Assembly (NCBI RefSeq): GCF_932294415.1
Contig: NC_065536.1
Location: 34,964,354 to 35,028,353 of the forward strand
DNA length: 64,000 nucleotides
DNA from: Quercus robur
Lineage: Eukaryota; Streptophyta; Magnoliopsida; Fagales; Fagaceae
Direction: 5' to 3'
Shown here: piece by piece, positions 8,729-47,274 of the stretch
Layout: each line of letters begins with the position of its first letter
Numbering within the stretch: the stretch's first letter is position 1
The notes under the pieces: generated by a model
Seen by the model: only the letters and a program-made list of their open reading frames with translations
What the model was told of the DNA's origin: nothing
Databases searched by the model: none
Program-made: the position numbers and the translations under genes

Positions 8729-9245
8729 CGTGTCTCTGTCATATTGGACAAGATAAGAACACAGATTCTTGTTGCTTCGTATTCCGTGTTTGACGCATTT
8801 ATTATGAGTTGATGTTTCGTCTACCATGTGACATGTGTACGGTCAATATGACTTCGTCATGTCAATTTTTCTCAGTTTTCCACACAAGATCTTCTATTTG
8901 GTCTGTGTTTTTCCCTCCTTTTTTTATTGATGTGTTATTGTTTGTAAGCATTTCATTTCTTTGGAGCTCTCTTCTTTTTCCCCGATATTCCTCTCATTTT
9001 TGGTAAGTCCTTTTCTTAATCTCCTTTCTTTCCTTCATCTTTTCATGGTGGATTTTTCTTTGGTTAGAACAAGTTGTCCCCTATCTCTTTTTTCCTTGCT
9101 CACCTGTGTAGTTTGCTTGAGTCCATAGGTAGAAAACGTCCTGGGGTTGGGCTTTTTGTAGGGAGAGATTGCCCCTATAGGTTTATTCTGCCTTTTCTCT
9201 TCCCTTTAGTTTACTGTTCAGTAGGAGTTGCCCAAACTTCGATAA
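8729..9245. other. 3' non-coding region of the Tat-type element
   Basis: Pyrimidine-rich on the plus strand; no conserved frame. It lies between the antisense ORF and the 3' LTR. Confidence 0.4.
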
Positions 9246-20590: not shown

Positions 20591-20992
20591 AGGGGAAAAT
20601 GAAATTACCACCAATAAATAGGACTTTTACCAAGCACTATTGGAAACTTATCGCATAATTGATTTTATTACTAATTTAAGGTTAACAGGATTTAAGGCCT
20701 ATTAGCCTAAATCAAGTATCAAACTATGTGGGAACTATAAGAATGAGTTTATAGGTTTTCTAAAATCTGAATAATTCTTAAAATTTATAAATTTAATCTC
20801 AACACATTCCAACAAGCATATATTTATTAAAAAAATGACGTAGGTAAGATGAAACTATTAGGTTTCAACAAACAAAACGTACAATTATTGCAAAAATATT
20901 TTCTATTTTAAAATTTTCAGATAAATTAAATTACTCAACATTCTTACTTATAATGGAAACTTCACAAAATTGCAAAGAGTATATATATCTTC

Positions 20993-21651
20993 TATAGGGA
21001 CACGGTTTTCAGCCCAGACCCAAAATGTATGGGATACTGGCCCAGTGAACCCAGTACAATAAATTTGTAGAGAGTGGGTAGAAGAACTAGGCTTTAGTGA
21101 ATGGGATAGCAGTTATAATGAGTCTCCAAGGCAATCAAACGGAAACGAACCAAGTTTGTACAAGAAAGTTTGTCCTCGGCACAATCCGAGGAGCTCTGTT
21201 CTAGTATATATTGGATGATAATGGTTACAGGAGTTCTTGAGATTTCTACAGTGCTTTCTCTCTTAATCCCCGGGCCCCTTCTCCATGGTGAGTCTCTCCT
21301 ATTATATAGTCCCCTTTGAACGATCTTGGCCTTCCACTTGTTGATCATCCAAGCCTATACTTGAGTGTCTGTCCCATCAGACACCCTCTCTGGCGTTCTG
21401 TGAGTTGCGGTAACTGAGATAGTACTATTCAAGGGTCTTGTCCACATAAATGCGGTGTTAGCAACTTTCCCTTAAATATTCCTGAGTTCCTGTCCTTTAG
21501 AACTTCCTAGAAGGTCACTCTAACTATTTAGGACTTATATCTGACCGTGCTTTAGCTGGTCCGAGGATATATTCCTCCTCGGACTTGGACTATCGCGCTC
21601 TCGGCCAAAGCCTCACGCCCCATTGTATGATTTTTAGCCCATGACCCCACA
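20993..21651 (-). repeat. 3' LTR (left copy)
   Basis: Minus-strand start TGTGGGGTCATGG, end CTATA where the other copy has CTACA. The second base of the terminal dinucleotide is mutated (TATAGGGAC on the plus strand instead of TGTAGGGAC). A TATA-like GGACTATATAATAGG lies near 21300-21315 on the minus strand. Confidence 0.9.
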
Positions 21652-21668
21652 ATAGCCCCTCAAAACTC
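21652..21668 (-). promoter_or_regulatory. polypurine tract of the LTR retrotransposon
   Basis: Minus-strand TTTTGAGGGGCTAT runs directly into the LTR start TGTGGGG. Confidence 0.7.
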
Positions 21669-22560
21669 TGGTTTTTTCCTCTCACCCGAGGAGAAAAGTG
21701 GGGTTTTGAATTTTTTTAAGAGTTAACTCTACTTGATCCTTTGATTTACACCCGTGGGAGTGCCGTTTCACGCGCCCTATATTTGTACTGTAAATTGCAC
21801 ATTTCAGAGCTAAAAATCTGAGGAGTCGGTTATAATCTTGGGTCTGTCTTGACATTTAGGCAATGTTTGGATCCACGTTTCTTCCACGTTTGCGTCTGCA
21901 TTTGTTATAATTGCTGGGACCCACGCTCCAAAACGTGGAAACGGGAAACGCAGGCTGAAGGAGAAACGCGCAAAGGGACATTCGGAAACGCAAAAAATCA
22001 CTCACAACGCACCGTTTCATTTAGTCAGTACTGTTCATGGACCAGCTCTCTTCATTCTCATCACAAATACGCACCGTTTAATTAAAAAACTGGTCTTGCG
22101 CGTCCTGTTCATCCTTGCGCGTCCTGTTCATTGTTTTGTGAGCGTACTGTTGAACGAAATGAAGTTGTTCTGATGCCCATCACAAAACGGTACGCAACGG
22201 CTATTTTCTTCTCTCTCTCACAAACCGGACCAGCTTTCTTTTCTTCTCTCTCTCAACTACCTTGGTTCAATGCCTTCAATGCTAGTTGTTGCTCCGTCCA
22301 AGTCGTCTTCAATGCTTTGCACCTACCCACAAACCACAAAACCATCAAAACAGAGAAGGAAAGGAACTCAAAAACCCATTAGCCGAACCTCTCTAAACCA
22401 CTCCCCCCTGTTCTTCCTTCACTCGAGTGAATCTCCTCTCCGCTGTGGACACCGTTGCCGCCGCTGTGGGTCTCCACATTCACCGGTAAGAGTCATTAAA
22501 ATTAAAATGCTCTCTGATCTGCTGGTGTAGTTATATTGTTTTCTCTGATCTGTGTGATTC

Positions 22561-23242
22561 TCTGATCTGTTTGTGTTCAACGTTCATCCCTTTTTTTTTT
22601 TTATGTGTTTTCCAAGACAGTATGAAAGTAGGTTCTTCGATCCTCCGTGTAAACCTTTGTTGTATTTGGATGTATGTGTGAGTTTAGTTTTCATTTTGCC
22701 TAACTGATTATGATTATGCACATGAACTGCTTGTTGAAATGTGTCAATGAGGCATTTCATCAATCTATGGTTTTGTAAAAAAAGGCGTAGGACAATACTG
22801 AATATATAGGAAGACCTGCTGCTTTCATTGACCCATACATTGCATAAAGAAGCTAGACTCTGATCATTTCGCTGTCAAGTACTCAAGTTGCTCCCAAAGT
22901 ACTGCTAATAACAAAAACGTGTAGAATTTAATGGTTTGGTAGCAATCTTTTTGTCTCCGTGAATAGCTAGATTGACTACTTGGCCAGTGGGCTAGCTTTG
23001 GCATTTACTTCTCAGTGATAAAAAGTAAAAACACCTCGATCAAAGACTTTTATCTGATCTGTTTGTGTTCATGAGTCTGTGCGTTTTTTTTTTATGTGTT
23101 TTCCAAGACAGTATGAAAGTAGGTTCTTTGATCCTCCGTGTAAACCTTTGTTGTATTTCGATACATGTGTGAGTTTAGTTTTCATTTTGCCTAACTGGTT
23201 ATGATTATGCACACGGACTGCTTGTTGAAATGTGTCAATGAG
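22561..23242 (+). repeat. direct duplication of about 190 bp in the leader of the accessory gene
   Basis: The sequence from TCTGATCTGTTTGTGTTC through ATGAAAGTAGGTTCTT to GTGTCAATGAG occurs at 22561-22751 and again at 23053-23242 with few differences. It is non-coding and lies in what is probably a 5' leader intron (possible donor at about 22481). Upstream, CTTGCGCGTCCTGTTCAT is tandemly duplicated near 22093-22130. Confidence 0.75.
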
Positions 23243-23265
23243 TGTAGAAGGAAGTTCTAGGAAAA

Positions 23266-24324
23266 ATGGTTAAGGAGAAATTGAAGGATGGTGGTAGTAA
23301 TGATCAGAGAGCTGATTGGAAAGACCCTAAGGAACTACAAGCCTTTTGTCAATTATGTGCTGCTCAAGTCCTAGCCGGCCAGAGGAAAGGAGGGTTTCTA
23401 ACCAAAGTTGGGGTTGACAACGTGATTGAACAGTTGGGTAACATGGGGAAAGTGGTGACTCCACTTCAGATTAAGAATAAATGGGATCATCTGAAAAAAG
23501 GGTGGAGGGATTATAACCAGTGTTTTGACAATGAGACTGGGTTGGGTTATGACCCGGGAACTGGGATGCTTCAGGCCCCTGATGAGTGGTGAACTCGAAA
23601 GATTGCGGTTAGTTCACGTTACATAATTATGAAATTCTTTATTGTCTAAAACCATATTATTGTGTTCTAATTATTGCTTGTCCACACGTAGGAATGTCCC
23701 CTTGCAAAAACCTTTAAAAATAAAGGTTTGCCGAATCATGACTTCAAAAACATCATGTATGGAGGCACGGTTGCAACAGGGAAAAATGCGTTTTGCACGA
23801 GCGGTCAATTACCAAAGGAAACCACCGAAGGTTCTGGGGACTCTGCTGATAGCACAGAATTTGTTGACCCCCAATGTGAACCGTTTGTGAATGTTGACAC
23901 AATGGAGGTTGAAGGTCCATCATTGTCGAGGGCAGAACCAGCAGTGAGTAAGGGGAAAGGCTTGGCAACCAATGTCCACCTTTTCAAGCCAATGTACAAG
24001 AAATAATAAAAAAAGCCTTCAGTTGCGCAAGAGATGTCCGACTCTTTGAAGAGCATCTCAAATGTGATTGTTCAGAGTAGAAGTGGAAGTACACATAAGG
24101 ATATTGCTTCCACAGCAACTACTCAAGTTAAAGCCATTTTGGACATGGTGTTGAGTCTTCCAGGGGTGTACTCGGGGCATTACCTTCATCTGTTTAGCAC
24201 CATCTACTTCATGGAAAAAGAGTGGGGTAGGCACATGTTTCTTGCCCTTGGCGATGACAAGGATATCCAATTGAAGTGGCTAGAAAAAGAGTACCAAAGG
24301 CACCCTGAATTCCATTTTGACTAA
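23266..24324 (+). pseudogene. Harbinger accessory gene with Myb/SANT-like DNA-binding domain, two stop sites
   Basis: Exon 1 (23266-23607) encodes a Myb/SANT-like trihelix (ELQAFCQLCAAQVLAGQRKG, QIKNKWDHLKKGWRDYNQ, then ETGLGYDPGTG and APDEW). In PIF/Harbinger elements such a protein binds the ends and works with the transposase. A GT-AG intron (23608-23691, phase 0) joins exon 2 (23692-24324), which continues with GLPNHDFKNIMYGGTVATGK and an acidic linker, ending in a helical tail (LGDDKDIQLKWLEKEYQRHP). The frame is whole except for a TGA at 23590-23592, where the family has a second Trp (DEWW), and TAA TAA at 24004-24009. These few stops in an otherwise open frame suggest recent inactivation. 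Confidence 0.8.
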
Positions 24325-24403
24325 AGGAAAGAAAATTGTCTCGATAGGAACACGGGCTTGGTGTAGTAATCGTATTTTCAGCGTTGTACTTGTTGGACGA
24401 TTG

Positions 24404-24434
<31 letters not shown>

Positions 24435-24693
24435 TGGTAGAACTAAAGCTTACCATGGCTGTGTATGTAAGACAAAATTTATCATTTCTATGTCAACTTT
24501 TGGGTATATTTATATATGTTTTCCCAATGCCTCTTTTAGCTATCTTTTTTGTATTTTTGATGGTTATGCATTGTTATTTGTGGTAAACTTTGATGATGGT
24601 TGTTCATGTTTGGCAAGAAGAAGTCATGGCATATATATATATATATATATATCATTGAAGCAAGTTCTATGTCTTGTGGTTGTTTTTCTGGTT

Positions 24694-24922
24694 CTGCATC
24701 AGGGCTGCATTAGTCGCTGCATCAGGTGCTGCATCAGGGTGCATCAGGTGCTGCATCAGGTGCTGCATCAGGGTGCATCAGCTGCTGCATCAGGGGGTGC
24801 ATCAGTGCTGCATTAGTCGCTACATCAGGTGTTGCATCAGAGTGCATCAGGTGCTACATCAGTGCTGCATCAGTCGCTGCATCAGGTGTTGCATCAGAGT
24901 GCATCAGTTGCTACATCAGTTA
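24694..24922. repeat. TGCTGCATCAGG-type minisatellite
   Basis: About 18 imperfect copies of a 9-12 bp unit (TGCTGCATCAGG, GGTGCATCAG and variants). Open in several frames only because of its composition; no start or flanking coding support. Confidence 0.85.
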
Positions 24923-27804
24923 TTGGTATGATTATTTCAGATATTGATGCTTTTATGCTCTTTAACTGCTTCTAAAATGGATGTGACTAATTTGAAAAAG
25001 AATTGTTGTCCTTTGTCTTGAGTGACATATTAGTATTCATACTGAACTTTGAGATTTGTATTTGTGTGTTTTAGGGGGAGTAAGAGAGAGGTCCTGTAAT
25101 GGATTCTTTAGTATAAACGCACATAAATAGAAGTTCCGTATATTTTCGCTGTCTCACCTTTTCTTTTCTAGCCAAGAGGTGCTTTTTTCAGTTTCATTTT
25201 GCTTGAATTGTAAGCAAATAGCCTCCAGACACATATAACAGAAATATGATTACATGTTTGAATATGAACAGGGAAGAGCTAGGCTTTCAGTGTTATAAGT
25301 ATTTATCTTTATATTTGTTGGATTATATTTATACCGAAATATAGTAGTTCATTTTATTCGTTGTTTTGAAATTCTTAGTGCATGTTAAAAATCTATTCCT
25401 CATAAATCTACAGGAACCGGTATTTTCTTTTTGGGTACTTAGCAGAAGTGGTTGAGTTTGATATGGTGATAAGCTCTCTTTTTGTCCCGCTTTCATCTCT
25501 CTCTTGTCATAAGAATTATACAATTTTTGGCTCTTTTAATTCTTTATAATATTGGGGCCTCCTGCTGTTAGGCTTAGCTTTTTTGGGCAGCCATAAATTC
25601 AATGTCCCACCTGGTGAGGGTTTGAAATTTCCCTAGCAATTATATTTCCTCTGTCCTGTCTTGTTTAATTTTTTTCTCATTCAATCTGAAGATGGTAATG
25701 CCTCTTATTGTTGTGGGGCAGGTAAATTAACAAAGTTTGTAACCGATGTTTGCCAGGGAAAAATAATTCAGGCTTTTGCTTTATCCTGTTATGATTTGCA
25801 TGTGTTGGGCTTTGCATGTAACCTTAGATTGTTGCTGATTACTTTCCTTGTCGTAGAAAGTGAGTGGACAAACACTGTCAATATCAAATCAGGTTCATTT
25901 TTAGTCTGAAGTTTTTGTTATTTCTGGTCTCATATTTGAGCACTGATTGACATGTTTCTTTATAAGCTGTAGATGTCCATCTTGTTGTTTTGTGTGGACA
26001 ATGTTGATTATTTTAATCTTGATCTATCTACATCAGGGGAAATTGAGTTGGACTTGCATTGACCATTGCTATGTTCTTTTTCTTCCATGGTTATCAAAGT
26101 AAATTAGTCTACCGTTGATGGCTTAAAAAACATAGGGTACACCTGGTTCCTGTCCTCCATGTAAAGCTTTTCATCTGCACAAAAATGAGTGGCTATAAGA
26201 TACCATTTAAGACTCAAAAGTCAAAACACACAAGAAAATGTTGTCGTACATATCAAGTTGTAAATTGTATTTTTAAATAAAAGTGAAGTAAACTTCTTTA
26301 AGTTTGAAGAGAAGAAAATTGATGTTTTTACTTTTTATCATGCTAAAATCATGTTTTGCACAACTGAACCATATAGCGGTGCAAATATGGATGACGGTGC
26401 AAACACATTGTTCTGGATTCGAATTTAAAGGTACTTACTTCCATCTCTTTCTTCTCTTGTGTGTGAGTAATTTTACTTCATAATAATCGTTAGTAAATCG
26501 TTGGCAGGGGCTCAATACTTTTTAGGTGAGATGATTCTTAATATTTAAATATAAAATAAATAAATAATATTTATTTATCTTTCTATATTTTAATTTTTTT
26601 CCTTTTGTTTAAAAATTATTTTCTTGCCATTTGAGATGTAAGATTATTAATTAAATTTTTGTATTTAAGTTTTATTAAAATCTCGTCTACAATTGAAAAT
26701 AGTTTTTTTTTTTGAGACAAAGGTAAGCGAAATATTATCAAGAAAAACCAATAAAAAAATAAATAAATAAAAAACACACTCATAACAATTTTCTCTTGGT
26801 AAAATAATTAAGGGATTTCAATTGAGTTGGATTTCAATTCCTTCAATAGACGTGAGAGAAGGAATGGAAAATACACTTATATCATTTTATTTAAAAAAGA
26901 TAAAAAAAAAAGAAAAAAATTGTCATTCTAATTAATCCCTTGAAATAACCTCAACAGTGGAAAGAAAAAGTATTTTTCCTGTAGTAGTCCATCGATTAGT
27001 TCAGATTGGGTTGTTGTTTTAGATTATTATGAGTTAAGAGTTTTATGGACATTATCTTTTAGTCCTGGAATTGGTTTTGTATTTCAAAAGAAAAAAAATA
27101 GTATTTTGCACCAAATATGCCTTGTCAATGTGTAAATGCCAAGTACGTAAACTAAACATGTTGATTGATAAATTTTTAAAATTAAGTGCCAAGACCTTAT
27201 ATTATCCTACACTCTGAAGTAATAATTTTATTCCACATGATTTATTAGTTAAGTTGGAATATCCTTATGTTTGCCATAGAGAGTATTCTTGAAAAGATAA
27301 TAGAATAAGTTTTATTTTATTCATGAACTGGGTAGAAATATATATTTTTTAAATGAAATTTATTCTCAAAGAAAATTGTGGTATTTTAGCATGTATGCAA
27401 AATACATTTATTTTATATCATTGCAGCAGTAGTAATTACAACACTTATGTAAAACAAGGGAAGTAAGACCTCCATTTCATGCTTATATGCAATTGTTTGA
27501 TTATTGGAGTAAGGCTTCCATTTCATGCTTTACTTATTCTACTCATGCTCAAGTATTAATATCTGACATGATGTTCAATGGAATTGGTTTTGTATTTCAA
27601 TGTTTTAAATCAATTTGCTTATGCATTTTGGGAAACTTCTATATATATATATATATATATATCAAAGAAAAAAGTAGAGATAATTAATTAAATATATGTA
27701 TTTCAATATTTTATACTTCCACCTAAGTGTTGAGAGTTTCTTTGGTTGTGTTGGGATATACAAGGAGAAATAGGCATTAATGTAGACTCAAGGTATACAA
27801 AAGG
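24923..27804. other. Harbinger internal spacer, no gene seen
   Basis: About 2.9 kb between the accessory gene and the transposase. AT-rich, with T-rich tracts and a TA microsatellite at about 27640-27662. No conserved frame recognised. Confidence 0.5.
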
Positions 27805-29369
27805 ATGGATTTGCTAAATGACTCATCTGATTCCCAGCACCAGTAAGTTTCTATACTTTCCCCTCTAGATGTGAATATACAATTTGAAGAAATCTTAGAT
27901 GAAATCATGAAAGCATATGCTTAGGATTGTTAATTTAGCCTACATTTTTCATTTTTTTACTAACCTATATATTATAGTATCACATTAGTATTTGTATATA
28001 TGCAGGGACAATGAGTTTGACCTGAGCGACGACATTGTACATGCAGCATATATAGCAGGGTGTTCATGTGCATTTTACGTGGAGACCTATATGACTAAAA
28101 TACCATTGCATACGAATATACAAAGTGGGTATGAATGGGTACAGTATACATTAACTGGAAATGAGGAGAAATGTCGAAGAAATTTTAGAATTTCAAGCCA
28201 TGTGTTTAGACAACTATGTAATACATTGCGCCAGTATGGATATAACGGTACCAGAAGAATTTGCTTGGAATAGTCTTTGGCAATGACATTGGTGGTACTT
28301 GGTCATGCCGAGGGTAATAGATGGGTACAAGAAAGATTTCAGCACTCGGGTGAGACAGTACATCGACACGTGACCACGGTAGTTAAATTGTTAGCCACCA
28401 TAATGGCACCAGACATTATCAAGCCTGCTGATCGTACATTTCAGGACGTGCCAAAACATATTCAGCATTCAAGTCGATATTGGCCACACTTTAAGGTACT
28501 TTCTGAATTTGGTATCTTCACTTGATTTTATTCAAATTATCTTTATGGTTATACCATGTATTTAATTTCACATTTGATTTTTGTTGCACTGGTTAGGGTT
28601 GCATTGGTGCGATTGATGGGGTCCACATCCCCGTGATCATACCAGATGAGGAGTAACACCCGTACTATAACAGGAAGGGGATCACCACAACAAATTGTAT
28701 GTGTGCGTGTGACTTTGACATGAAGTTCACATTCGCATGTGTAGGGTGGGAAGGGCCAGCGCATGACACGAGAATTTTTTTAAGCTGTCTCAATAATGAG
28801 AGCGACAACTTTCCAAAAGCTCCAGCTAGTTAGTAAATATGTAGTTTAATTACAGTATTAAAGTATGTATTAATGTAGTGAAAATGCTAATGTAATAAAT
28901 GTTTTCATCTATAGGAAAGTATTATCTTGTTGATTCAGGGTACCCTATGAGGAAAGGGTTCCTTGCACCATATAAGGGGGAGAGGTACCACATCCCCGAA
29001 TTTCAGCCTTATGAAGTGCTGCATCGTCCAGAGGAGAGATATAATTATCTCCATTCGTCACTCCGTTCGGTCATAGAACGAACTTTTGGAGTTTGGAAGA
29101 ATAAATGGAAAATTTTGAGAAATATGCCAGGGAAGAGTATACATAGTCAATCGAAAATCATTGTTGCTACAATGGTTCTTCACAATTTCATTAGAGCACA
29201 TGAGATAAATAATAATGTTAACAGTTCCAGATATACAGGGGGCACATCTGAACGTAGTGAGAGAGGTTATTACGATGCCGAGGCACATGCAATCTCAATC
29301 TTGGACGAACTTGAGATGAAACAAGTTCGTGACAATATCACAGCATCGATATGTGCGGACCATAACTGA
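27805..29369 (+). pseudogene. PIF/Harbinger DDE transposase, four exons, two premature stops
   Basis: Exons 27805-27842, 28006-28495, 28597-28828 and 28915-29369 join with GT-AG introns and matching phases to 405 codons including the stop, a normal size for plant Harbinger transposases. Recognisable parts are a short acidic start (MDLLNDSSDSQ), the helical region (CRRNFRISSHVFRQLCNTLR, VQERFQHSGETVHRHV) and the nuclease (GCIGAIDGVHIPVIIPDE, GPAHDTRIF, HSSLRSVIERTFGVWKNKW). The catalytic triad Asp (28615), Asp (28765) and Glu (29076) is intact. Stops are a TAG at 28271-28273 (where a Glu codon is likely) and a TAA at 28654-28656. The enzyme would cut and rejoin DNA at TTA targets; this copy cannot make it in full. 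Confidence 0.85.
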
Positions 29370-29775
29370 GTATGGTGACTATTATTTTTGTCACAATGGA
29401 AATTTAGTGTGGTTGAAAATACCATTGACATTATGGAAATTTTGTTTGTGGGGACCAAATTGGACAGTTCACAAACTTCAATATTGTATTACCATTTTTT
29501 GTTATATTGTTGGTAAGCACAACTGAGGGCTCACAAAACTTGATTGTAATACCATTACAGTATGCATTTGTATATAATCGTTACACGTGAAACTCATGGG
29601 TATTGCAACAGTAGATGTCAAGATTATAGGAAACTTATAAATAGACCCCAATCTTATTTGAACAAGACATAAACAATACTAGAAAATATAAAACCTGTTT
29701 GTATACAGGAGAGAGTATAGCTTCAATATCATTAAGATTGTACTCTTTCTACATATGTAGCAACCTAGCTTTGGG
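29370..29775. other. transposase 3' flank, no gene
   Basis: AT-rich, no conserved frame. The probable 3' UTRs of the transposase and of the opposing BPS1-like fragment meet here. Confidence 0.4.
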
Positions 29776-30399
29776 TCACAGAGTACCATTACATAGCAAA
29801 GCATCACGCCTAGTTAAAACTACATGAAAAAAGCCATCAACTTCCTTTGTAAGAAGATCTATAGTCCCTATGGAAGTCCCTCTGCTCTCCTTGCCAAATC
29901 TGAAACGGATGACAAGGAATGCTTCCGCTTTAATAGGGTCCACACCACCTTGGATCGTGGGATACAATTTATTTACACTTGTATCAACTGCTTCGAGCTC
30001 TTTCAAAACTGTAAATCTTCCACTTGAATATAAATTTCTAATTTCACTATTAATGCTAGTTTGCAAACTAGTAAAAGCTTGAGCCCACAAAACCCTTTGT
30101 CATCAACATTCAAATCAAACAACTCTATTGCAGAACTAGAGAAGGGTGAAGAAAAGACACTGTAGATAAATACCATCAAAAAAAACCCCATACATAGCAC
30201 GCATTAAAACCTTCCCTTTGGCTGAGTTCGTAACCTGCTCCGTTGGGTTAAGCTTTCTCAGCCTCCCACCCAAGGTTTCCTCAAAATTGTTCAACAGTAA
30301 AAGAAGCCTTTCAGACAAATTGCAACCCTTGGGTGATATCATCCGGGAAGGATTTCCAAAACGGAAGAAGGGATGGGGTAAGCCATGTGGAGGACTCAT
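29776..30399 (-). pseudogene. BPS1-like gene fragment with the middle of the protein deleted
   Basis: The minus-strand frame starts at an ATG (30399) with PHGLPHPFFRFGNPSRM then LLLLLNNFEETLGGRLRKLN, the N-terminus of plant BYPASS1-like proteins (regulators of a root-to-shoot signal). It jumps directly to NSAKGKVLMRAMYGV, which normally lies about 145 residues further on. After a frameshift it continues as WAQAFTSLQTSINSEIRNLY, TVLKELEAVDTSVNKLYP and LTKEVDGFFHVVLTRRDALL to the stop at 29776. So both ends of the gene are present and the centre is missing, with at least one more frameshift and a stop near 30115. BPS1-type genes usually have an intronless coding region. The fragment lies inside the Harbinger element. 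Confidence 0.8.
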
Positions 30400-30702
30400 G
30401 TCAATGAATTAACTGCACAAGAAAGTTAAAACGGGTAGGGATGACATTAGAAAAAGCATCAGAAAAACCATAAGACAAAGCACCAAGTTCCCGCACCATA
30501 TGAAAAAAATTAATACAATACAGCATTTTTGCTTGCAGCATAAACAATTCCTTGACACAACAGCAAGAAAGTAATCATTTCAGCAAAGATGTTTCTACCA
30601 AAACACCTACCTATGGATAATAACTAGAACCAAACAGAATACTTCTAGAACTATAAAGGTAAGCAGCAGCAGCAACAACAGCAACAACAACATCAACAAC
30701 AA

Positions 30703-30737
<35 letters not shown>

Positions 30738-31747
30738 GCAGACAACAACCATGCCATCTCAGCACAGACTAATCAAGCTACAGACTAATCCCTTGACTTC
30801 TTTCAAATCATATTCATACAACAGATATGATTTCCATTTTCACAGGGGTACTCTCATGAACCCAACTTTCAAGAGCAAAACCAAAACCAACAAATTTACA
30901 GCAAATAATTAAAACAGAATTAAAAAAAATAAAAAATAAAAACAATGAAGACCCAAAAACCCAAACCCTGTGCTTGGTATAATTATACATCAACAGCAAA
31001 AGGTTTAAACTGTCAACCATAAATCCCTTGCATCCAAACATATATAATCAGAAATTAAAACAGAGCTTTCATTAGTAACCATAACTATTTGTGTCACAAC
31101 TTGAAGGTCCATGTTCAAGATTTAGAAAAGAATATACAGATTTCATTATCAACTACTGATATCAAACAAGTTCATAATTTTGCTGGTAAGACAATAACAC
31201 ATGCAAACTCCCAACTGACAATTCAGCTCAGTTATGATGCCATTTGCAATCAAAAGGGAAAGGAAGAATGCTAATTTTTTGTAGTAAAAAAAAAAAAAAA
31301 TTCAGTCATGCCAGTTGACAGTTGCGAAATTGTTAAAAGCATGACTGAATTGCAACTGCCAAATCTATATGAGAGTAAAATTTTCTACATAGGGCTGCTT
31401 CTTGGAAACAAAATAATAAAAGTAGGCACTCAAGGAATCCATGGATCACAATCCGAAGGACAGCAATAAAGAAAAAAATAAATAAATAAATAAAAGTGTC
31501 ATCTGACCCAGATTAGGCCTTTTTCAATCTGACCAAAAATTTCCTCTAAATGTTACGAAAAAAAAAATAATCAGCTAACAAACTTGTAGGTGCTATGTAT
31601 TTCTTGACACCTAAGATTGTGTAAATTATAAACACATACCCAACAAATAATAACTCACCTAATGGGATTGTGTAATTCATTACCTCACAAGTTTCTAGAG
31701 TCTACTGTAGAGGTACAGATTTAAAAGAAAAAGAAAAAGGAACTTAC
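30400..31747 (-). other. probable non-coding upstream part of the BPS1-like fragment and intron remnant
   Basis: A splice-acceptor-like TTGTGCAG lies 15 bases upstream of the BPS1-like ATG, as in a 5' leader intron. A CAG/CAA trinucleotide repeat fills 30662-30748. Two T/A-rich runs are near 31288 and 31558. No exon continuing the next gene fragment was found. Confidence 0.4.
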
Positions 31748-32250
31748 AGCAAAAGCGACGATAGCAGAAGAGAGGGCGAGAAAGCCATACTTGACCATGC
31801 CTTCGGAGAGGCCAATGAAGGTATTAGCTATGCCGAACATAAACCTCCAGATCAAAGCACAGAGTAAAACGGCAGTGGCCCCAAAGAGAAAGAGAGAGTT
31901 TATCTTAAAGAAAGCCTCAAATTGCAAACCAATGGCCTGGCGGTAGCGAGAGAAAGCGGAAGAGAGAGCTGTGGCGGGCTTGTCGAAGACCTTTCTAGCG
32001 AAGTTAGCATTGTTGACAGAAGAGAAGAACCTAAACCCAGTTGATGTGAAAGAGAGATTAGGGTTATGAGGTGGTTTGAAAGTGGAAGTGTTTGAGAAAG
32101 AGGGTTTTGGTTTAGAATGTTGAAATTGAAATTGGGAGATCAAGGAGGTTTTGGTTTCGGATGATGAGAAATTACGAATAGCAGCGTAAGAAGGGACATT
32201 CGGAAGTTCTGATGGGCGTGGAACTCTCCTGAGGCATGGAACTCTCCTGA
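31748..32250 (-). pseudogene. 5'-truncated first exon of an organelle membrane protein gene
   Basis: An open minus-strand frame without an upstream ATG reads a Ser/Arg-rich, probably organelle-targeting start (YAAIRNFSSSETK), then FSRYRQAIGLQFEAFFK, a hydrophobic helix (INSLFLFGATAVLLCALIWR) and FMFGIANTFIGLSEGMVKYG with a second hydrophobic stretch. It ends precisely at GCT|GTAAGTTCC (donor G at 31747). I recall plant proteins of unknown function with the GLSEGM.KYGFLAL segment, but cannot name the family. An 18-bp direct repeat (CTCAGGAGAGTTCCATGC and a variant) marks its 5' edge. The next exon is absent. The preserved donor shows that it was copied as DNA, not from a spliced RNA. Confidence 0.6.
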
Positions 32251-32639
32251 GGCGTTAGTTAGGGTCCAGAGAAGAGTGAATGAAGGAAAGGGGAAAAGGG
32301 TTTTTAATTTTGGTATTTATATGCTACAGTGTTTTCAGTTCCGCTACAGTACCGCGTTTGGTTTTTTTCATCTGCGTTTTTTCCACTTAATTGCTACAGT
32401 ATTTTTAACAATAAGTTTTCAGTTTCAGCAAAATAAGCTCTATCCAAACAGACCCTTAGTGAGAAACAAACAGATATCATGGAACGTTACTTTCTCCAAA
32501 GTATGTGGTCCGAGAAGTCAGGCATGACTAAAGTTCTGTTTAAACACTTGACAAGTCGTCATGGAATGTTAACCTTCCCGCATCATCTAGTCCGAGGACT
32601 TATGCATGGCTAAGGTTTCTGCTTAACACTTAGCAAGAG

Positions 32640-33030
32640 GTATGATAGACCCAACATACCCAAGGTTCTTCTTAGCAGGAGGTCTAAGAGACCCGACATA
32701 GCTAAGGTTTTTCTTAGTAAGAGGTCTAAGGGACCCGACATAGCTAAGGCGCTGTATAACGCTTAGCAGGAGGTCTGAGGGGATCCGACATAGCTAAGGT
32801 TCTTCTTAGCAGGAGGTCTGAGGGACCCGACATAGCTAAGGCTCTGTATAACGCTTAGCAGGAGATCTGAGGGGATCCGACCTAGCTAAGGTTCTTCTTA
32901 GCAGGAGGTCTGAGGGACCCGACATAGCTAAGGCTCTGTATAACGCTTAGCAGAAGATCCGAGGGGATCCGACCTAGCTAAGGTTCTTCTTAGCAGTAGG
33001 TCTGAGGGACCCGACATAGCTAAGGCTCTG
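32640..33030. repeat. 92-bp composite tandem repeat array
   Basis: The unit is two half-repeats of about 42 and 50 bp, both containing GCTAAGG and GCAGGAGGTCTGAGGG, ending GACCCGACATA or GGATCCGACATA. About four units lie head to tail. The stretch 32459-32640 before it holds more diverged relatives. Confidence 0.8.
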
Positions 33031-33100
33031 TTTAACTGCTTCTAAAGATGTCAGTGCGTGATAATTTCACCTTAGCATCTAGTCTGAGGACTACAGGCAT

Positions 33101-33615
33101 GACTAGGGTTCTATTTAACCACTTTCCCCGAGTGCCTTATAAGGCTCGACCCCAAGTGCAAAGATGTCACTGTGTGTTAATTTCCTCTTAGCATCTGGTC
33201 CGAGGACTACAGGCATGACTAAGGTTCTGTTTAACCACTTTCCCCGGGTGCCTTATAAGACTCGGCCTCGAGTGCAAAGATGTCACTGTGTGTTAATTTC
33301 CCCTTAGCATCTGGTCCGAGGACTACAGGCATGACTAAAGTTCTGTTTAAGCACTTTCCCCGGGTGCCTTATAAGGCTCAGCCCCGAGTGCAAAGATGTC
33401 ACTGTGTGTTAATTTCCCCTTAGCATCTGATCCGAGGACTACAGGCATGACTAAGGTTCTGTTTAACCACTTTCCCCGAGTGCCTTATAAGGCTCAGCCC
33501 CGAGTGCAAAGATGTCACTGTGTGTTAATTTCCCCTTAGCATCTAGTCCGAGGACTACAGGTATGACTAAGGTTCTGTTTAACCACTTTTCTCGGGTGCC
33601 TTATAAGGCTCAACC
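33101..33615. repeat. 116-bp tandem repeat array
   Basis: About 4.5 copies of a 116-bp unit, including GGTCCGAGGACTACAGGCAT, CACTTTCCCCGGGTGCC and GATGTCACTGTGTGTTAATT. GACTA begins at 33101 and again at 33217, giving the period. Copies are very similar, suggesting recent amplification. Confidence 0.85.
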
Positions 33616-33873
33616 CCGAAGGGAGCCCCTTGAAGGAGTCTATGGAATTTGCTCTTAGGCCATCGAACCATCTCACCGCCACGGGTCCCAGACTCTACGT
33701 TGCTCCTTAGAGATGTGACTTCCAACTCGAGAGTGGCTTTTGCTTGTATGCGTAGTATACACGCTGCCCTCTCGATTCCTCCTACGCTCAAGGTTGGCGA
33801 AAGAATTTTCGCGTTGGGACGCCGTGGGCTCTACCTGGTGAGGACCCGAACCCACCATAGTTGACCGTTGCAC
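33579..33873 (-). pseudogene. start of a gag-like frame, truncated
   Basis: Just inside the primer site, minus-strand frames read MVGSGPHQVEPTASQRENSF, then NREGSVYTTHTSKSHSRVGS, the Ser/Arg-rich, poorly conserved N-terminus seen in plant gypsy gag proteins. The frame shifts near 33700 and then gives way to the tandem repeats, so no capsid domain remains. Confidence 0.55.
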
Positions 33874-33891
33874 TCACTATCACACAAGCTC

Positions 33892-33909
33892 TTCCCACAG
33901 ACGGCGCCA
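33892..33909 (-). promoter_or_regulatory. primer-binding site
   Basis: Two bases inside the 5' LTR the minus strand reads TGGCGCCGTCTGTGGGAA. TGGCGCCGT is a recurrent start of tRNA primer sites in plant gypsy elements. The exact tRNA was not matched. Confidence 0.7.
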
Positions 33910-33911
33910 AT

Positions 33912-34570
33912 TGTAGGGACATGGTTTTCAGCCCAGGCCCAAAATGTATGGGATACTAGCCCAGTGAACCTAGTACAATAAATTTGTAGAGAGTGAGTAG
34001 AAGAACTAGGTTTTAGTGAATGGGATAGCAGTTATAATGAGTCTCCAAGGCAATCAAACGGAAACGAATCAAGTTTGTACAAGAAAGTTTATTCTCGGCA
34101 AAATCCGAGGAGCTCTGTTCTAGTATATATTGGATGATAATGGTTACAGGAGTTCTTGAGATTTCTACAGTACTTTCTCTCTTAATCCCCGGGCCCCTTC
34201 TCCATGGTGAGTCTCTCCTATTATATAGTCCCCTTTGAACGATCTTGGCCTTCCACTTGTTGATCATCCAAGCCTATACTTGAGTGCCTGTCCCATCAGA
34301 CACCCTCTCTGGCGTTCTGTGAGTTGCGGTAACCGAGATAGCACTGTTCAAGGGTCTTGTCCACATAAATGCGGTATTAGCAACTTTCCCTTAAATATTC
34401 CTGAGTTCCTATCCTTTAGAACTTCCTAGAAGGTCACTCTGACTATTTAGGACTTATATCTGACCGTGCTTTAGCTGGTCCGAGGATATATTCCTCCTCG
34501 GACTTGGACTACCGCGCTCTCGGCCAAAGCCTCACGCCCCATTGTATGATTTTTAGCCCATGACCCCACA
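33912..34570 (-). repeat. 5' LTR (right copy)
   Basis: 659 bp, intact TG...CA ends (TGTGGGGTC to CCCTACA on the minus strand), with the TATA-like ACTATATAATAGG promoter element near 34216-34230. It carries the 5' end of the element and is followed inward by the primer-binding site. Confidence 0.92.
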
Positions 34571-34682
34571 TCTTCCTTATAACATCCTCTGTCACATAAG
34601 GTATTTTCGTGAGATCCCGCACCTCCATATCTTTAGTATTTGAAACATTTAAATTGAATTTATGGATTCTGTGATTTGTTTC

Positions 34683-42700: not shown

Positions 42701-45700
42701 CAGGCACCCAGTGTTTTTTAACCCTTGGTGAGACAGAATCACCCAAGTTCGGGGGACATGGGCGAAGGGTCAGGCTCCCACGAGTCAGCCAAGAAGACTC
42801 CGACAGTGTCTTCGAGTACCGACGAGGTGGGTGGGGTGTTTTCAAGGTCCGAAGGTTGCTTTGATGTGGCTGTGGCTGGTGGTTCTTCTCTTGTGGGCTC
42901 TCTAAGCAGCGGTGCCGAGGTGGGGCAAATAGATTTTGCTACTACATTCATCGATGGTCCAGTTGTGGGTTGTCCAATCACTAGGGCTGAGGTGGGTTTG
43001 CATGTTTCCAGCTCTAATGATCATTTTGATGGGCTTTCTGACATCACCAAAACTGTTGATTCTCCAAATGTGGGATTTCCAACAATGCTATCGGTTTTCG
43101 AGCTCTCTGATATGCTTAGTTGCCACAAGTTGTTGAGACCAAACCGATTCTCTCCAGTTTTTAAGCTGATTTCTGATTCAAAGGAAGATGACATTCTATT
43201 GTTGAATTGGGACAATTCCATGGGGTCAGGTAAGGCTGAGAATGATCAAAATTCTTTGGATTGTGTAACTTTAGCTCAATGGGATCGTTATGGGGTCTAG
43301 ATTTAGTGACAGAGGAGGGTGTACTATATCGAATGACACTTTTGTGGGAGATGACTTGGAGCCTTCGGTTTGGGTGAAAAGGATGGTTATAGGCTTTGGT
43401 AAATTCGTGGGTTTTCCTATGGATTCCAGTGAGAGGCAATGTATTACTTTCTTTCAACAACTTGAGAGCTGTAGGAAGTCTCCGTCAAACTGCTTCTTCA
43501 CTTAAAAAAGGTATGAGGGAATTAAGGAACTTAGTTTCTTCTATTCATTATGATGGGCACTCTGGTAGAAGTACCAGAGGAAGTGTGAAATCCATTGGGA
43601 TGGACTCAGATTGTTGTCCATGAACTTGAAACTCTTATCTTGGAATGTGAGAGGATTAAACAATCCTCATAAGAGGGATACTATGAAGAATTTACTCAAG
43701 GAGTGGAAGTGTGAAGTTGTGTTTTCAAGAAACCAAATTGGACTATACCAACTCCTCTATTTTGAAAAGTCTCTGGAGCAGTCCTTTTGTAGATTGAGTA
43801 GTTTTGGATGCCATTCACATGGCAGGGGGTGTTCTCTTAACTTGGGATAGAACGGTGTATGAGAAAATTGACTGTGGTAGGTAGATTTTCTGTTTCTAGA
43901 GTGGCAAACAGTTTTGTTTGGATTTGTACGGGGTGTATAGTTCGACTATTGATGGTCTTAGGGATGCTTTGTGGGCAGAACTTGGTAGTGTGAGAATGAG
44001 GTGGAGCTTGGCTTGGTGTGTCTATGGTGATTTAAACATCATCAGATATCCAGTAAACCAACTTTAGGTTGTATTTCTTTTAGTCCAACCATGTTCAAAT
44101 TCTCGAACTTTATTGAGGAATTTTTTTGGTTGATCTACCTTTGGTGGGGGTGAGTATACGTGGTTCTGAGACTCAGAGAATCCTTCTATGTCTAGAATTG
44201 ATAGAGTTTTGGTTTCAGCTGACTGGTAGAATCATTTCTTGGATGTGATCTAGAGGCCTCCCCTCTTGTGGTATCCAATCAGTGTACTCTTATTATGAAG
44301 GCAAGTGGCATGTGGGGGGAGAAGAGCTCCTTTAAATTTGAAAATATGTAGCTCAAAGTGGAGGGTTTTGTGGAACAAGTTTGATGTTGGTGGAATGGAT
44401 ATCATTTTGTGGGGCCTCCTAGTTAAGTTCTAGCTTGTAAATTCACTTGTAAATTCAAGGCTCTAAGGAGATTTGAAGCATTGGAATAAACTTGTTTTGG
44501 GGACATGTCTTTTAGGAAAAAAATGGTTGTTGTCTGAGCTCTTGGATCTAGATACGAGAGAAGGGCTGCAAGTTTTGTCTCTGGCAAATGGAACAACAAA
44601 AACTGAGATCAAGGTCAATATCGAGTATTTAGCTTTCTTGGAGGTAGAAATCAAAGGCTTTGATTTTAAAAAAGAGGGGGATAATAATACTAGGTTATTT
44701 CACAGGCTTGCTAACTCCCATAGACGAACTAATACAATGAGAGATGTGGAGGTTGACGACATTATGTATAAGGCTGATTCGGATATTCAGGATCAAGTGG
44801 TGGATTTTTATAAGAATTTATATCGGGAATCTAAATCTTGGAGGCCTATTGTTGATGGTTTAGAGTTTTCTAGTCTGGATGAATCTGAGAGGTTATCACT
44901 AGAAAGGGACTTTGAAAAAAGAGGAGATTATTGAGGATGATAAGGCTCCTAGTCCTGATGGTTTTACCATGACTTTCTTTCAAAAGTGTTGGTGTGCACT
45001 TAAGAGGGATGTTATGGCTTTCTTTGTGGACATTCATAGACAATGTGTCTTTGATAAATCTCTCAATACCACTTTTTTGTGCTTGATCCCCAAGAAGATC
45101 AATGCAGTTAATATTAAAGATTGTCGTCCTATTAGCCTTGTGGGTAGTTTGTACAAACTTCTGTCAAGGGTGTTGGCTCATAGGCTCTGATGTGTGTTGG
45201 ATAATCTCATATCCAATTCCCAAAATTCTTTTGTTGGGGGAAGACAGATCCTTGACTCTGTTCTCATTGTAAATGAATACTTTGATAGTAGATTGAAGAG
45301 TGGCATTCCAGGCGTGATTGTTAAGTTGGATATTAAGAAGACTTATGATCATGTGAATTGGAGTGCTTTGTTTTACCTGATGGATAGGATGGGTTTTGGG
45401 GAGAAGTGAGGGAGATAGATGAAGGCATGTATTTCTATAGTACATTTTTCAATGCTTGTTAATGCAACTAGGTTTTTTGATAGTTCTCGCAATCTTCATC
45501 AAGGAGACCCCTTATCTCCACTCCTTTTCCTATTGGTGATGAAGGTGTTGAGTAGGTTATTGAAAAGGACAGAAGAGGGAGGTTTTCTTAGTGGTTTCCA
45601 AGCAAGCCCCAATGCGCAAGGAGGTTTGCATATTTCTCAAACCTATCTCCTTTTTGCTGATGATACTATTCTTTTTTTTTCCTTTTTGTAATGCATCTAG

Positions 45701-47274
45701 GGAAAAATTATTGTATATTTGGATGGTGTTGATTTTCTTTGAAGTTATCACAGGCTTGGAATTAAATTTTGGTAAGAGTGAGATTGTGCCTGATGGTGAG
45801 GTTGGGAATTTGGATGCTCTGGCTAGTATCTTATGTTGTAAGGTTAGCATTGCCCATGACTTATTTGGGTATGCCTCTTTGGGCTCATTATAAGGATTCT
45901 TCGATTTGGAACTCTATTATAGAGAGGCTGGAGAAAAAGCTCTCTAGTTGGAAGCATTTATATTAGTTAAAAGGAGATAGGCTTACTTTATTGAAAAGTA
46001 CTCTATCAAGCCTTCCCATTTATTATCTATCTTTGTTTACTATTCATCAACATGTGGCAGACAAATTAGAAATGATTCAAAGAAATTTCCTTTGGGAGAG
46101 ATATGCTAAAGTCTTTGAATATCTGCTTGTTGCTTGGGAAAAGGTTGTTTGGCCAGTGAAGCAGGTGGGAATGAAGTCACCCATTTATAGCGTCAGGTTA
46201 TAGCCACCAAATATGGGGAGGCTAGAGGAGATTGGTGCACTAGAGCTGTCAGAGAGACACATGGTTGTGGGACATGGAAGAAAATTAGGAAAGGAGAATA
46301 GAGTTTCTTTGGTCATGTGGTGTATGCGGTAGGAAAGGGTATTCGTATTTGATTCTGGTACAACCCTTGGAGCAGTCCTATTTCTTTGAAAGATTTGTAT
46401 TCAGATTTGTTTGCCTATGATATGGCTCAAGAAGCTTGGAATTCTTATTTGGTTTTTACTACACCAGATGTAGAAGCTAGAACTTAATATTCCATCGTGC
46501 CTTTCACAATTAGGAATTGGAGAAAGTTTATACTTTTTTTGTGCATATTTACTCCAAAATACCAAAGGGGGAGGGTGATGATATCTTAATTTGGCAGTTG
46601 ACTCGAAATGGTGTTTTTGATGTGCACTCATTTTATAATTCATTATAAGACGCCATTTCTGCTTCTTTCCCTTGGAAGAGCATTTGGTGTGTTAAGATAA
46701 CTAAAAGAGTGTTTTTATGGACAACTGCTAGGGGTGGGATTCTTACAATAGATAACCTTGTCAAGAGGAACTTGCCCCTTGTTAATTGGTGTTGCCTATG
46801 TCATTGTGATGAATAAACTGTAGATCATCTTCTGCTCCATTGTAAGCTTGTTCATGCTCTATGAAGTGAAGTCTTTCTTATGTTTGGGGGCCAGTGGGTG
46901 ATGCCGAATATAGTTGTTTCTCTCCTTTTTGCAGGGAAGAAATGATTAGGGGCACTTTCTTCAAATGTTTGGAATATGGTATCGTTGTGTCTTATGTGGT
47001 TGATCTAGAAGGAACGCAATTCCCGAACATTTGAAGACATTGAGAGACTTGGAGATCTATTGAAGTCTTTGCTAGCTATGACGTTGTTTGAGTGGTCTCG
47101 TATTTGGTGTTTTACACATTGTATTTCCATGTCTGATTTCCTTATTTTTGTTAGCTCTTCCCTTTGATTTGTTTGCATTCGTTTCAAGTGTAGTTGGTTT
47201 ACTATCGTAAACAGATTGAATTTTTCTTATCAATAAAACTTTTATTACCTATCCAAAAAAATTACTTATATAAT

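What the first reader, a model, noticed from the sequence alone, without database searches (positions are those of the whole stretch)
21859..32455. PIF/Harbinger element that appears to have captured two unrelated host gene fragments
TTA flanks both ends, the accessory and transposase genes are inside, and the block interrupts a retrotransposon that is otherwise continuous. Between the transposase and the right end are pieces of a BPS1-like gene and of an organelle membrane protein gene. Gene capture is well known for MULEs, Helitrons and CACTA elements but much less so for Harbinger.
Basis: partly seen in the sequence, partly recalled or inferred. Interest (0 to 1): 0.85.

Follow-up and report, generated by a model that had tools for sequence, protein, structure and literature searches.

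The report
Jumping gene stuffed with plant DNA
This is a PIF/Harbinger transposon in a plant genome that carries, between its own genes and ends, copies of fragments from about nine unrelated places in the host genome, and its relatives in the same genome show the states before and after some of those captures.

Summary
Block 21859-32455 is one PIF/Harbinger element inside an LTR retrotransposon; paralogous retrotransposons show the empty site with one TTA. The same ends bound relatives at independent sites; 7 of 10 copies have equal 3-bp flanks. Donors were found for both fragments: a 352-aa BPS1-like ORF at C4:38.66 Mb and a gene at C37:67.64 Mb. Relatives without the second fragment show its insertion point: 11 bp of element lost, no target duplication.

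The 2.1 kb before the transposase is a patchwork: C38, C6, C40, the same C38 locus again 13 bp further on, then C4; joints overlap by 0-3 bp. Nine donor loci supply about 47% of the element. Other copies carry other patches, one a kinase-gene fragment.

Best reading: repeated break repair inside the element with unlinked chromosomal DNA as filler. The BPS1 cargo looks dead. Gene capture by PIF elements is already published (PMC2528002, PMC8903248); the layering and before/after states are the interest.

The parts
20993..34570 (.). Host LTR retrotransposon interrupted by the block; LTRs 20993-21651 and 33912-34570; TCTTC repeat at 20988-20992 and 34571-34575
   Evidence: empty site
21856..21858 (.). 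left TTA target-site duplication
21859..32455 (+). the whole PIF/Harbinger element (10,597 bp)
21859..21872 (+). left terminal inverted repeat GGCAATGTTTGGAT
23263..24323 (+). accessory gene (ORF1, Myb/SANT-like), broken by stops; extent by eye
   Evidence: PF12776 E=5e-11 on 23263-23589; stops visible
24687..24920 (+). GCATCAG-type minisatellite at the left edge of the filler region
24923..25029 (-). captured piece 1, donor C38 near 48,557,000 (100%)
25030..25268 (+). captured piece 2, donor C6:46,526,146-46,526,384 (97%)
25267..26055 (+). captured piece 3, donor C40:41,354,189-41,355,023 (97-98% in two stretches)
26053..26372 (-). captured piece 4, the same C38 locus (48,556,652-48,556,971), resuming 13 bp beyond piece 1 (98%)
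26372..27069 (+). captured piece 5, donor C4:1,502,385-1,503,081 (89-95% in two stretches)
27084..27403 (+). older captured piece, donor C5:19,396,248-19,396,643 (94-98% in two stretches); donor sequence not fetched
27408..27465 (-). 58-bp remnant of a serine-carboxypeptidase-like gene fragment, donor C2:88.698 Mb (98%); gene name read by eye
27998..29369 (+). transposase gene (DDE_Tnp_4), three exons by eye, broken by two in-frame stops
29691..31604 (-). captured BPS1-like gene (3' part, coding region with an internal deletion, sequence upstream of the start codon), donor C4:38,659,595-38,661,847
31077..31495 (+). further captured piece inside the BPS1-derived stretch, donor C39:21,566,299-21,566,730 (88%)
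31694..32205 (-). captured fragment of an uncharacterised plant gene (part of exon 1 plus start of intron 1), donor C37:67,638,581-67,639,107 (95%)
32442..32455 (-). right terminal inverted repeat (GGGTCTGTTTGGAT inverted)
32456..32458 (.). right TTA target-site duplication

Best explanation
A PIF/Harbinger transposon family in this plant has repeatedly taken up copies of unlinked host DNA into its interior and multiplied some of them. Shown: one element with matching ends and 3-bp target duplications, an empty site, donors present elsewhere in the genome, and relatives that lack individual fragments. Inferred: a double-strand break or gap inside the element was repaired by copying from, or joining in, unrelated chromosomal DNA (gap filling with template switching), after which the element jumped on with its cargo using its own or a relative's transposase. 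The window copy has layers: an old BPS1-like capture, a C39 piece inside it, carboxypeptidase and C5 pieces, the C37 exon, and a five-piece patch that among the scored matches only the C37:9.75 Mb copy shares. The BPS1 cargo shows no sign of protein function; the transposase and accessory genes of this copy are broken.
For: Same two ends on independent copies, with equal 3-bp flanks in 7 of 10 copies examined: window, C38 and C37b TTA, C2 TTT, C1b and C40a TAA, C4:74.07 TAT. Empty site. Donors: 352-aa BPS1-like ORF, 202-aa ORF over the first exon of the C37 gene, 339-aa kinase ORF with the AA_kinase domain. BPS1 coding sequence: 1 intact locus and 23 other loci (some matches as short as 32-65 bp), of which 22 lie within 20 kb of a match to the element's 24000-25000 region. 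Before/after for the C37 fragment: copies C4 and C40a keep an 11-bp stretch that C2, C1a and C1b replace with the fragment; read on C1b, one joint has one extra base, the other none, and there is no target duplication. Before/after for the patch: copies C38, C2 and C1b keep about 0.8 kb or more of other DNA where the window and C37a have the patch. Patch order C38-C6-C40-C38-C4 with overlaps 0, 2, 3 and 1 bp. Other patches in the same interval of C40a and of C4 and C1a. No match of element-native sequence in 12 fetched donor stretches.
Against: The repair step itself is not observed. Overlaps of 0-3 bp also fit plain end joining, and no chance model for overlap length was computed. Copy C1a shares one patch with C4 and the C37 fragment with C2 and C1b, so simple descent fails and exchange between copies must be assumed. 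The flanks of C37a are TTA and TAG, and those of C1a and C4 could not be resolved. The C5, C40:23.11 and C39:40.64 donors were not fetched, so their polarity rests on match boundaries. Only one part of the C37 donor gene was seen. A single BPS1 capture is assumed; the distant copies keep different parts of the gene and no copy without BPS1 was found that shows its insertion point.
Confidence: 0.78

Rival explanations
1. Neighbour fusion: two related elements landed near each other and the outer ends mobilised the DNA between them, as proposed for Pack-CACTA and Pack-PIF.
For: Published model for this very superfamily; it would also give cargo inside one element.
Against: Cargo of one element comes from nine loci on eight contigs. 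The C37 fragment sits inside element sequence that continues on both sides, with only 11 bp lost and no leftover inner ends at the joints seen. A donor is re-used 13 bp further on.
Confidence: 0.1
2. Separate transposon insertions: the pieces are themselves small mobile elements that inserted one by one.
For: One piece in copy C40a (its 8881-9204 stretch) is a multicopy MITE with TTA flanks.
Against: The window pieces show no target duplications at the joints displayed. The C38, C6 and C4 pieces have one to a few matches each; the C40 piece belongs to a tandemly repeated family. The BPS1 and kinase donors are uninterrupted ORFs.
Confidence: 0.04
3. Plain end joining of DNA fragments (linear pieces ligated into a break) rather than copying with template switching.
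For: Junction overlaps are 0-3 bp, one with an extra base; donors standing in this genome do not tell copying from ligation.
Against: Return to the C38 donor in the same orientation 13 bp on is easy for a copying strand; ligation needs a later break within the first piece.
Confidence: 0.3
4. The cargo is kept because it works, for example as a chimeric gene reading from the C37 exon into BPS1.
For: Both gene fragments read in the same direction, and the large BPS1 deletion totals 381 bp, a multiple of three.
Against: All six copies examined share a 2-bp insertion that shifts the BPS1 frame, and changes relative to the donor are 31-35 non-synonymous to 7-10 synonymous codons. Expression was not tested.
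Confidence: 0.04

Closest known systems
Pifvine-3 PIF elements of grapevine (Benjak et al. 2008, PMC2528002, section 10 read)
   Same: PIF elements with up to 3.5 kb of extra DNA besides ORF1 and transposase, in most cases matching host exons and introns, shared in some cases by several copies
   Different: There the extra DNA is a long 5' region; here it lies between the two genes and between the transposase and the right end, with nine donors in one element and before/after copies at base resolution
Maize Zm-Pack-PIF cluster 18 and other Pack-TYPE elements (Gisby & Catoni 2022, PMC8903248, sections 8 and 9 read and passages)
   Same: Stepwise internal gain of gene fragments in a PIF family (163 bp, then 58 bp)
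   Different: Those elements average 0.4-0.5 kb, belong to a class defined as non-autonomous, and their growth was explained by fusion of neighbours; here the elements are larger, carry a transposase gene, and the joints seen speak against fusion. The 1.05-kb C4:74.07 Mb copy is close to their class
Pack-TIRs of animals and the gap-filling model (PMC8277862, passages read)
   Same: Breaks inside the element, small loss of element sequence, microhomology with a median of 2 bp, filler from elsewhere
   Different: In animals most unique cases have a donor on the same chromosome (59.8%), often within 15 kb; here the donors lie on eight contigs and the products multiplied
Pack-MULEs of rice and Helitrons of maize (multi-gene cargo recalled; the families are mentioned in PMC13317346, section 7 read)
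   Same: Elements that carry host gene fragments
   Different: Different transposase families

Membership tests
PIF/Harbinger superfamily | 3-bp TTA/TAA-type target-site duplication | tested here: met
   7 of 10 copies have equal 3-bp flanks (TTA three times, TAA twice, TTT, TAT); 1 unequal (TTA/TAG), 2 unresolved
PIF/Harbinger superfamily | short terminal inverted repeats of the GG..TGTTTGG type (motif recalled) | tested here: met
   11 of 14 bases equal between the ends (read)
PIF/Harbinger superfamily | DDE transposase of the DDE_Tnp_4 family | tested here: met
   PF13359, 56.4 bits against a cut-off of 24.8, on 28899-29369; gene broken in this copy
PIF/Harbinger superfamily | second gene with a Myb/SANT-type domain | tested here: met
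   PF12776, 43.8 bits, on 23263-23589; broken in this copy
PIF/Harbinger superfamily | empty site with one target copy | tested here: met
   4 of 4 fetched retrotransposon paralogues
Pack-TYPE transposons | host gene fragments between the ends, donor elsewhere | tested here: met
   BPS1 and kinase donors with full-length ORFs, C37 donor with a longer first exon
Pack-TYPE transposons | non-autonomous, no transposase gene | tested here: not met
   the window copy contains a (broken) transposase gene; the 1.05-kb C4:74.07 Mb copy shows no match to that part and fits
Neighbour-fusion origin of cargo | cargo is one chromosomal stretch flanked by inner element ends | tested here: not met
   several donors on different contigs, no inner ends at the joints displayed; not testable for the old BPS1 capture
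Gap filling with template switching | small loss at the break, 0-few bp overlap at joints, donors kept | tested here: met
   11 bp lost at the C37 fragment, about 0.8 kb at the patch; overlaps 0-3 bp in the four inner joints of the patch; donors present; the repair step itself is inferred
Gap filling with template switching | overlaps longer than chance | not tested
   no null model was run

The most novel reading that the evidence does not exclude
The interval between the accessory gene and the transposase of this family is a recurrent break-and-fill site. At least once, a single repair event copied five pieces from four unlinked loci and returned to its first template 13 bp further on, and such chimeras then transposed. 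That would make template-switching repair inside a transposon, rather than fusion of neighbouring insertions, a main source of cargo in TIR elements.
Probability: 0.4. Interest if true: 0.68.

Novelty: new member of a known kind. Interest (0 to 1): 0.55.

Why it matters
How DNA transposons pick up pieces of unlinked genes is unsettled; a 2026 review says there might be a yet undiscovered mechanism for fragments of unlinked genes (PMC13317346, section 7). This family keeps donors, element copies before a capture and copies after it in one genome, so models of capture can be tested base by base. It also shows that a large PIF element can be nearly half host DNA, which can mislead gene annotation.

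Tried and rejected
Tried without result: plasmid collection search with the cargo (no match). Considered that the two ends belong to different families because they share only about 14 bp: rejected, since they recur together on relatives. Considered an RNA-derived capture at the jump inside the C1:8.03 Mb piece of copy C40a: rejected, no splice signals at the jump (by eye); the C37 fragment also keeps the start of an intron. A 15-bp repeat AAGGGACATTCGGAA at 21973 and 32191 was considered as a joining homology; its right copy lies in the C37-derived fragment, so I treat it as chance or minor. Functional cargo was considered and disfavoured. Absolute dating was not attempted: no mutation rate for this plant is at hand.

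Limits: the genome tool scores only the best candidates (40 at most in these searches), so copy counts, and the statement that the patch is shared only with C37a, hold for the scored matches. Paper searches made; one search found the word Pack-PIF in one paper only. I found no description of this oak-type family in those listings, which is not proof that none exists.
Full report
WHAT WAS CHECKED. The window lies on contig C3 of a 786-Mb genome. The block 21859-32455 is bounded by TTA on both sides and sits between two LTRs that differ at 22 of 661 positions; the retrotransposon has its own 5-bp flank repeat TCTTC (by eye). A query made of the two flanks joined at one TTA matched other copies of the retrotransposon without interruption. 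Of the 40 candidates scored, five loci aligned over the full 353 bp at 95-98%; four were fetched and all four show a single TTA at the joint. The block is therefore an insertion into that retrotransposon.

ONE ELEMENT, NOT TWO. The ends share GG...TGTTTGGAT (11 of 14 bases) but nothing convincing further in. That alone would leave open that the ends come from different elements. Ten related regions were fetched and compared. Left and right end sequences occur together on C37:9.75 Mb (C37a), C38:22.9, C37:19.89 (C37b, internally deleted), C2:51.44, C1:52.1 (C1a), C1:2.45 (C1b) and C40:24.27 (C40a); C4:2.42 matched at the right end only, and C6:50.0 and C40:0.9 are distant relatives whose fetched stretches did not match these ends. 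Together with the window and a small copy at C4:74.07 Mb, ten copies (the eight with at least one end, the window and the small one) were examined for flanks. Seven have equal 3-bp flanks (TTA three times, TAA twice, TTT, TAT), C37a has TTA and TAG, and C1a and C4 could not be resolved. A search with the left 332 bp gave 41 matches from 40 scored candidates: nine (the window included) cover all or most of the query, two reach base 111 or 191, 29 cover only its first 48-85 bases, which looks like MITEs sharing the tip, and one is a second stretch of one of these.

GENES OF THE ELEMENT. PF12776 (Myb/SANT-like) in 23263-23589 and PF13359 (DDE_Tnp_4) in 28899-29369 are the two proteins expected of PIF/Harbinger. 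Both genes carry in-frame stops in this copy, so this copy looks unable to supply its own transposase today.

THE TWO REPORTED FRAGMENTS. 29691-30513 and parts up to 31604 match, in order, a locus at C4:38.66 Mb that has an uninterrupted 352-aa BPS1-like ORF (PF05633 and PF03087). A search with that coding sequence found the intact locus and 23 other loci, some with matches of only 32-65 bp; 22 of the 23 lie within 20 kb of a match to the element's 24000-25000 region, and the exception is a 51-bp match. So the dispersed BPS1 fragments seen here travel with this transposon family. 31694-32205 matches C37:67.64 Mb (95%), where a 202-aa ORF covers the first exon and runs into the intron; the rest of that gene was not fetched or read. 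Its relatives in other plants are, where named, uncharacterised proteins (63 hits), and no Pfam family matched, so the label organelle membrane protein is not tested here.

BEFORE AND AFTER. In copies C4 and C40a the place of the C37 fragment is undisturbed. In C2, C1a and C1b the same surroundings contain the fragment in place of 11 bp; read on C1b, the left joint has one extra base, the right joint none, and no target duplication is seen. C38 has in addition lost about 120 bp to the right of the fragment, and the window and C37a have also lost about 70 bp to its left. Base identities in four blocks order the copies in broadly the same way, with C40a and C4 outermost of the main group in the right end.

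THE LARGER FINDING. The 2.8 kb from 24925 to 27700, between the accessory gene and the transposase, was searched against the genome (40 of 591 candidates scored), and the donor sequences for 24923-27069 were fetched and compared. The order is: 24923-25029 from C38:48.557 Mb; 25030-25268 from C6:46.526; 25267-26055 from C40:41.354; 26053-26372 from the same C38 locus, 13 bp beyond the first piece and in the same direction; 26372-27069 from C4:1.502. Overlaps at the four inner joints are 0, 2, 3 and 1 bp. Among the scored matches only C37a shares this patch (98%). Copies C38, C2 and C1b have other DNA there, and much of that in turn matches C5:19.396 Mb, of which 27084-27403 remains in the window. 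27408-27465 is a 58-bp remnant of a carboxypeptidase-like gene at C2:88.698 (the gene name is read by eye from motifs). 31077-31495, inside the BPS1-derived stretch, matches C39:21.566. Counting the spans 24923-27069, 27084-27467, 29691-31604 and 31694-32205, 4,957 of 10,597 bp (47%) are host-derived; this counts small unmatched gaps within the BPS1 span as captured, so it is an upper figure for these donors.

OTHER COPIES, OTHER PATCHES. Copy C40a holds the C2:88.698 fragment with stretches from C1:8.03 Mb inserted at one base of it, and a MITE with TTA flanks. Copies C4 and C1a share pieces from C40:23.11 and C39:40.64 (98-99%). A 1.05-kb element at C4:74.07 Mb (left end, 377 bp of a kinase gene at 98.7%, the remnant of the C37 fragment, right end) has its donor at C41:12.22 Mb with a 339-aa ORF (AA_kinase; the specific name N-acetylglutamate kinase is recalled). 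That C1a shares one patch with C4 and the C37 fragment with others means copies have exchanged parts; this is inference.

HOW IT PROBABLY WORKS. Donors are present elsewhere, the fragments sit inside continuing element sequence, element loss is small in one case (11 bp) and about 0.8 kb in another, and the inner joints of the patch have 0-3 bp overlap. This is what break repair inside the element with unrelated DNA as filler would leave. Whether the filler is copied with template switching or ligated is not settled; re-use of the C38 donor 13 bp on favours copying but a second event would also do. The fusion-of-neighbours model of Gisby & Catoni does not explain several unlinked donors in one element.

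IS THE CARGO ALIVE? In the six copies examined BPS1 has a large internal deletion and a shared 2-bp frame-shifting insertion, with 31-35 non-synonymous against 7-10 synonymous changed codons relative to the donor. This looks like unconstrained decay. The other cargo was not tested for selection, and expression was not tested.

RELATION TO WHAT IS KNOWN. PIF elements with transduplicated host DNA were described in grapevine in 2008 (section read) and Pack-PIFs in 2022 (sections read). Gap filling was argued for animals in 2021 (passages read). The 2026 review leaves the mechanism for unlinked fragments open (section read). The window element is a member of that known kind, unusual in its number of donors and in the preserved intermediate states.

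Noticed in passing
20993-34570: The interrupted retrotransposon has 116-bp and 92-bp tandem repeats in its interior; paralogues at C37:63,148,863, 63,151,230 and 63,153,597 are spaced exactly 2,367 bp apart, suggesting a tandem array of the retrotransposon.
   Followed up: no
C4:74,071,122-74,072,170 (L035/L031): A 1.05-kb element of the same family carries a 98.7% identical piece of a kinase gene (N-acetylglutamate kinase by recall) plus the remnant of the C37 fragment, flanked by TAT.
   Followed up: yes
22558-22751 and 23050-23242: A 91% identical direct duplication in the 5' part of the element, with matching pairs in several relatives.
   Followed up: no
C2:62,937,848-62,939,017: Match pattern suggests another internally deleted copy of about 1.2 kb with both ends and part of the cargo.
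   Followed up: no
43802-46168 and 50592-52982: Two 2.4-kb stretches, 76% identical, in inverted orientation; not examined.
   Followed up: no
P0069 and P0079: Quercus lobata BPS1-like proteins with missing or repeated segments, possibly gene models drawn on captured transposon copies.
   Followed up: no
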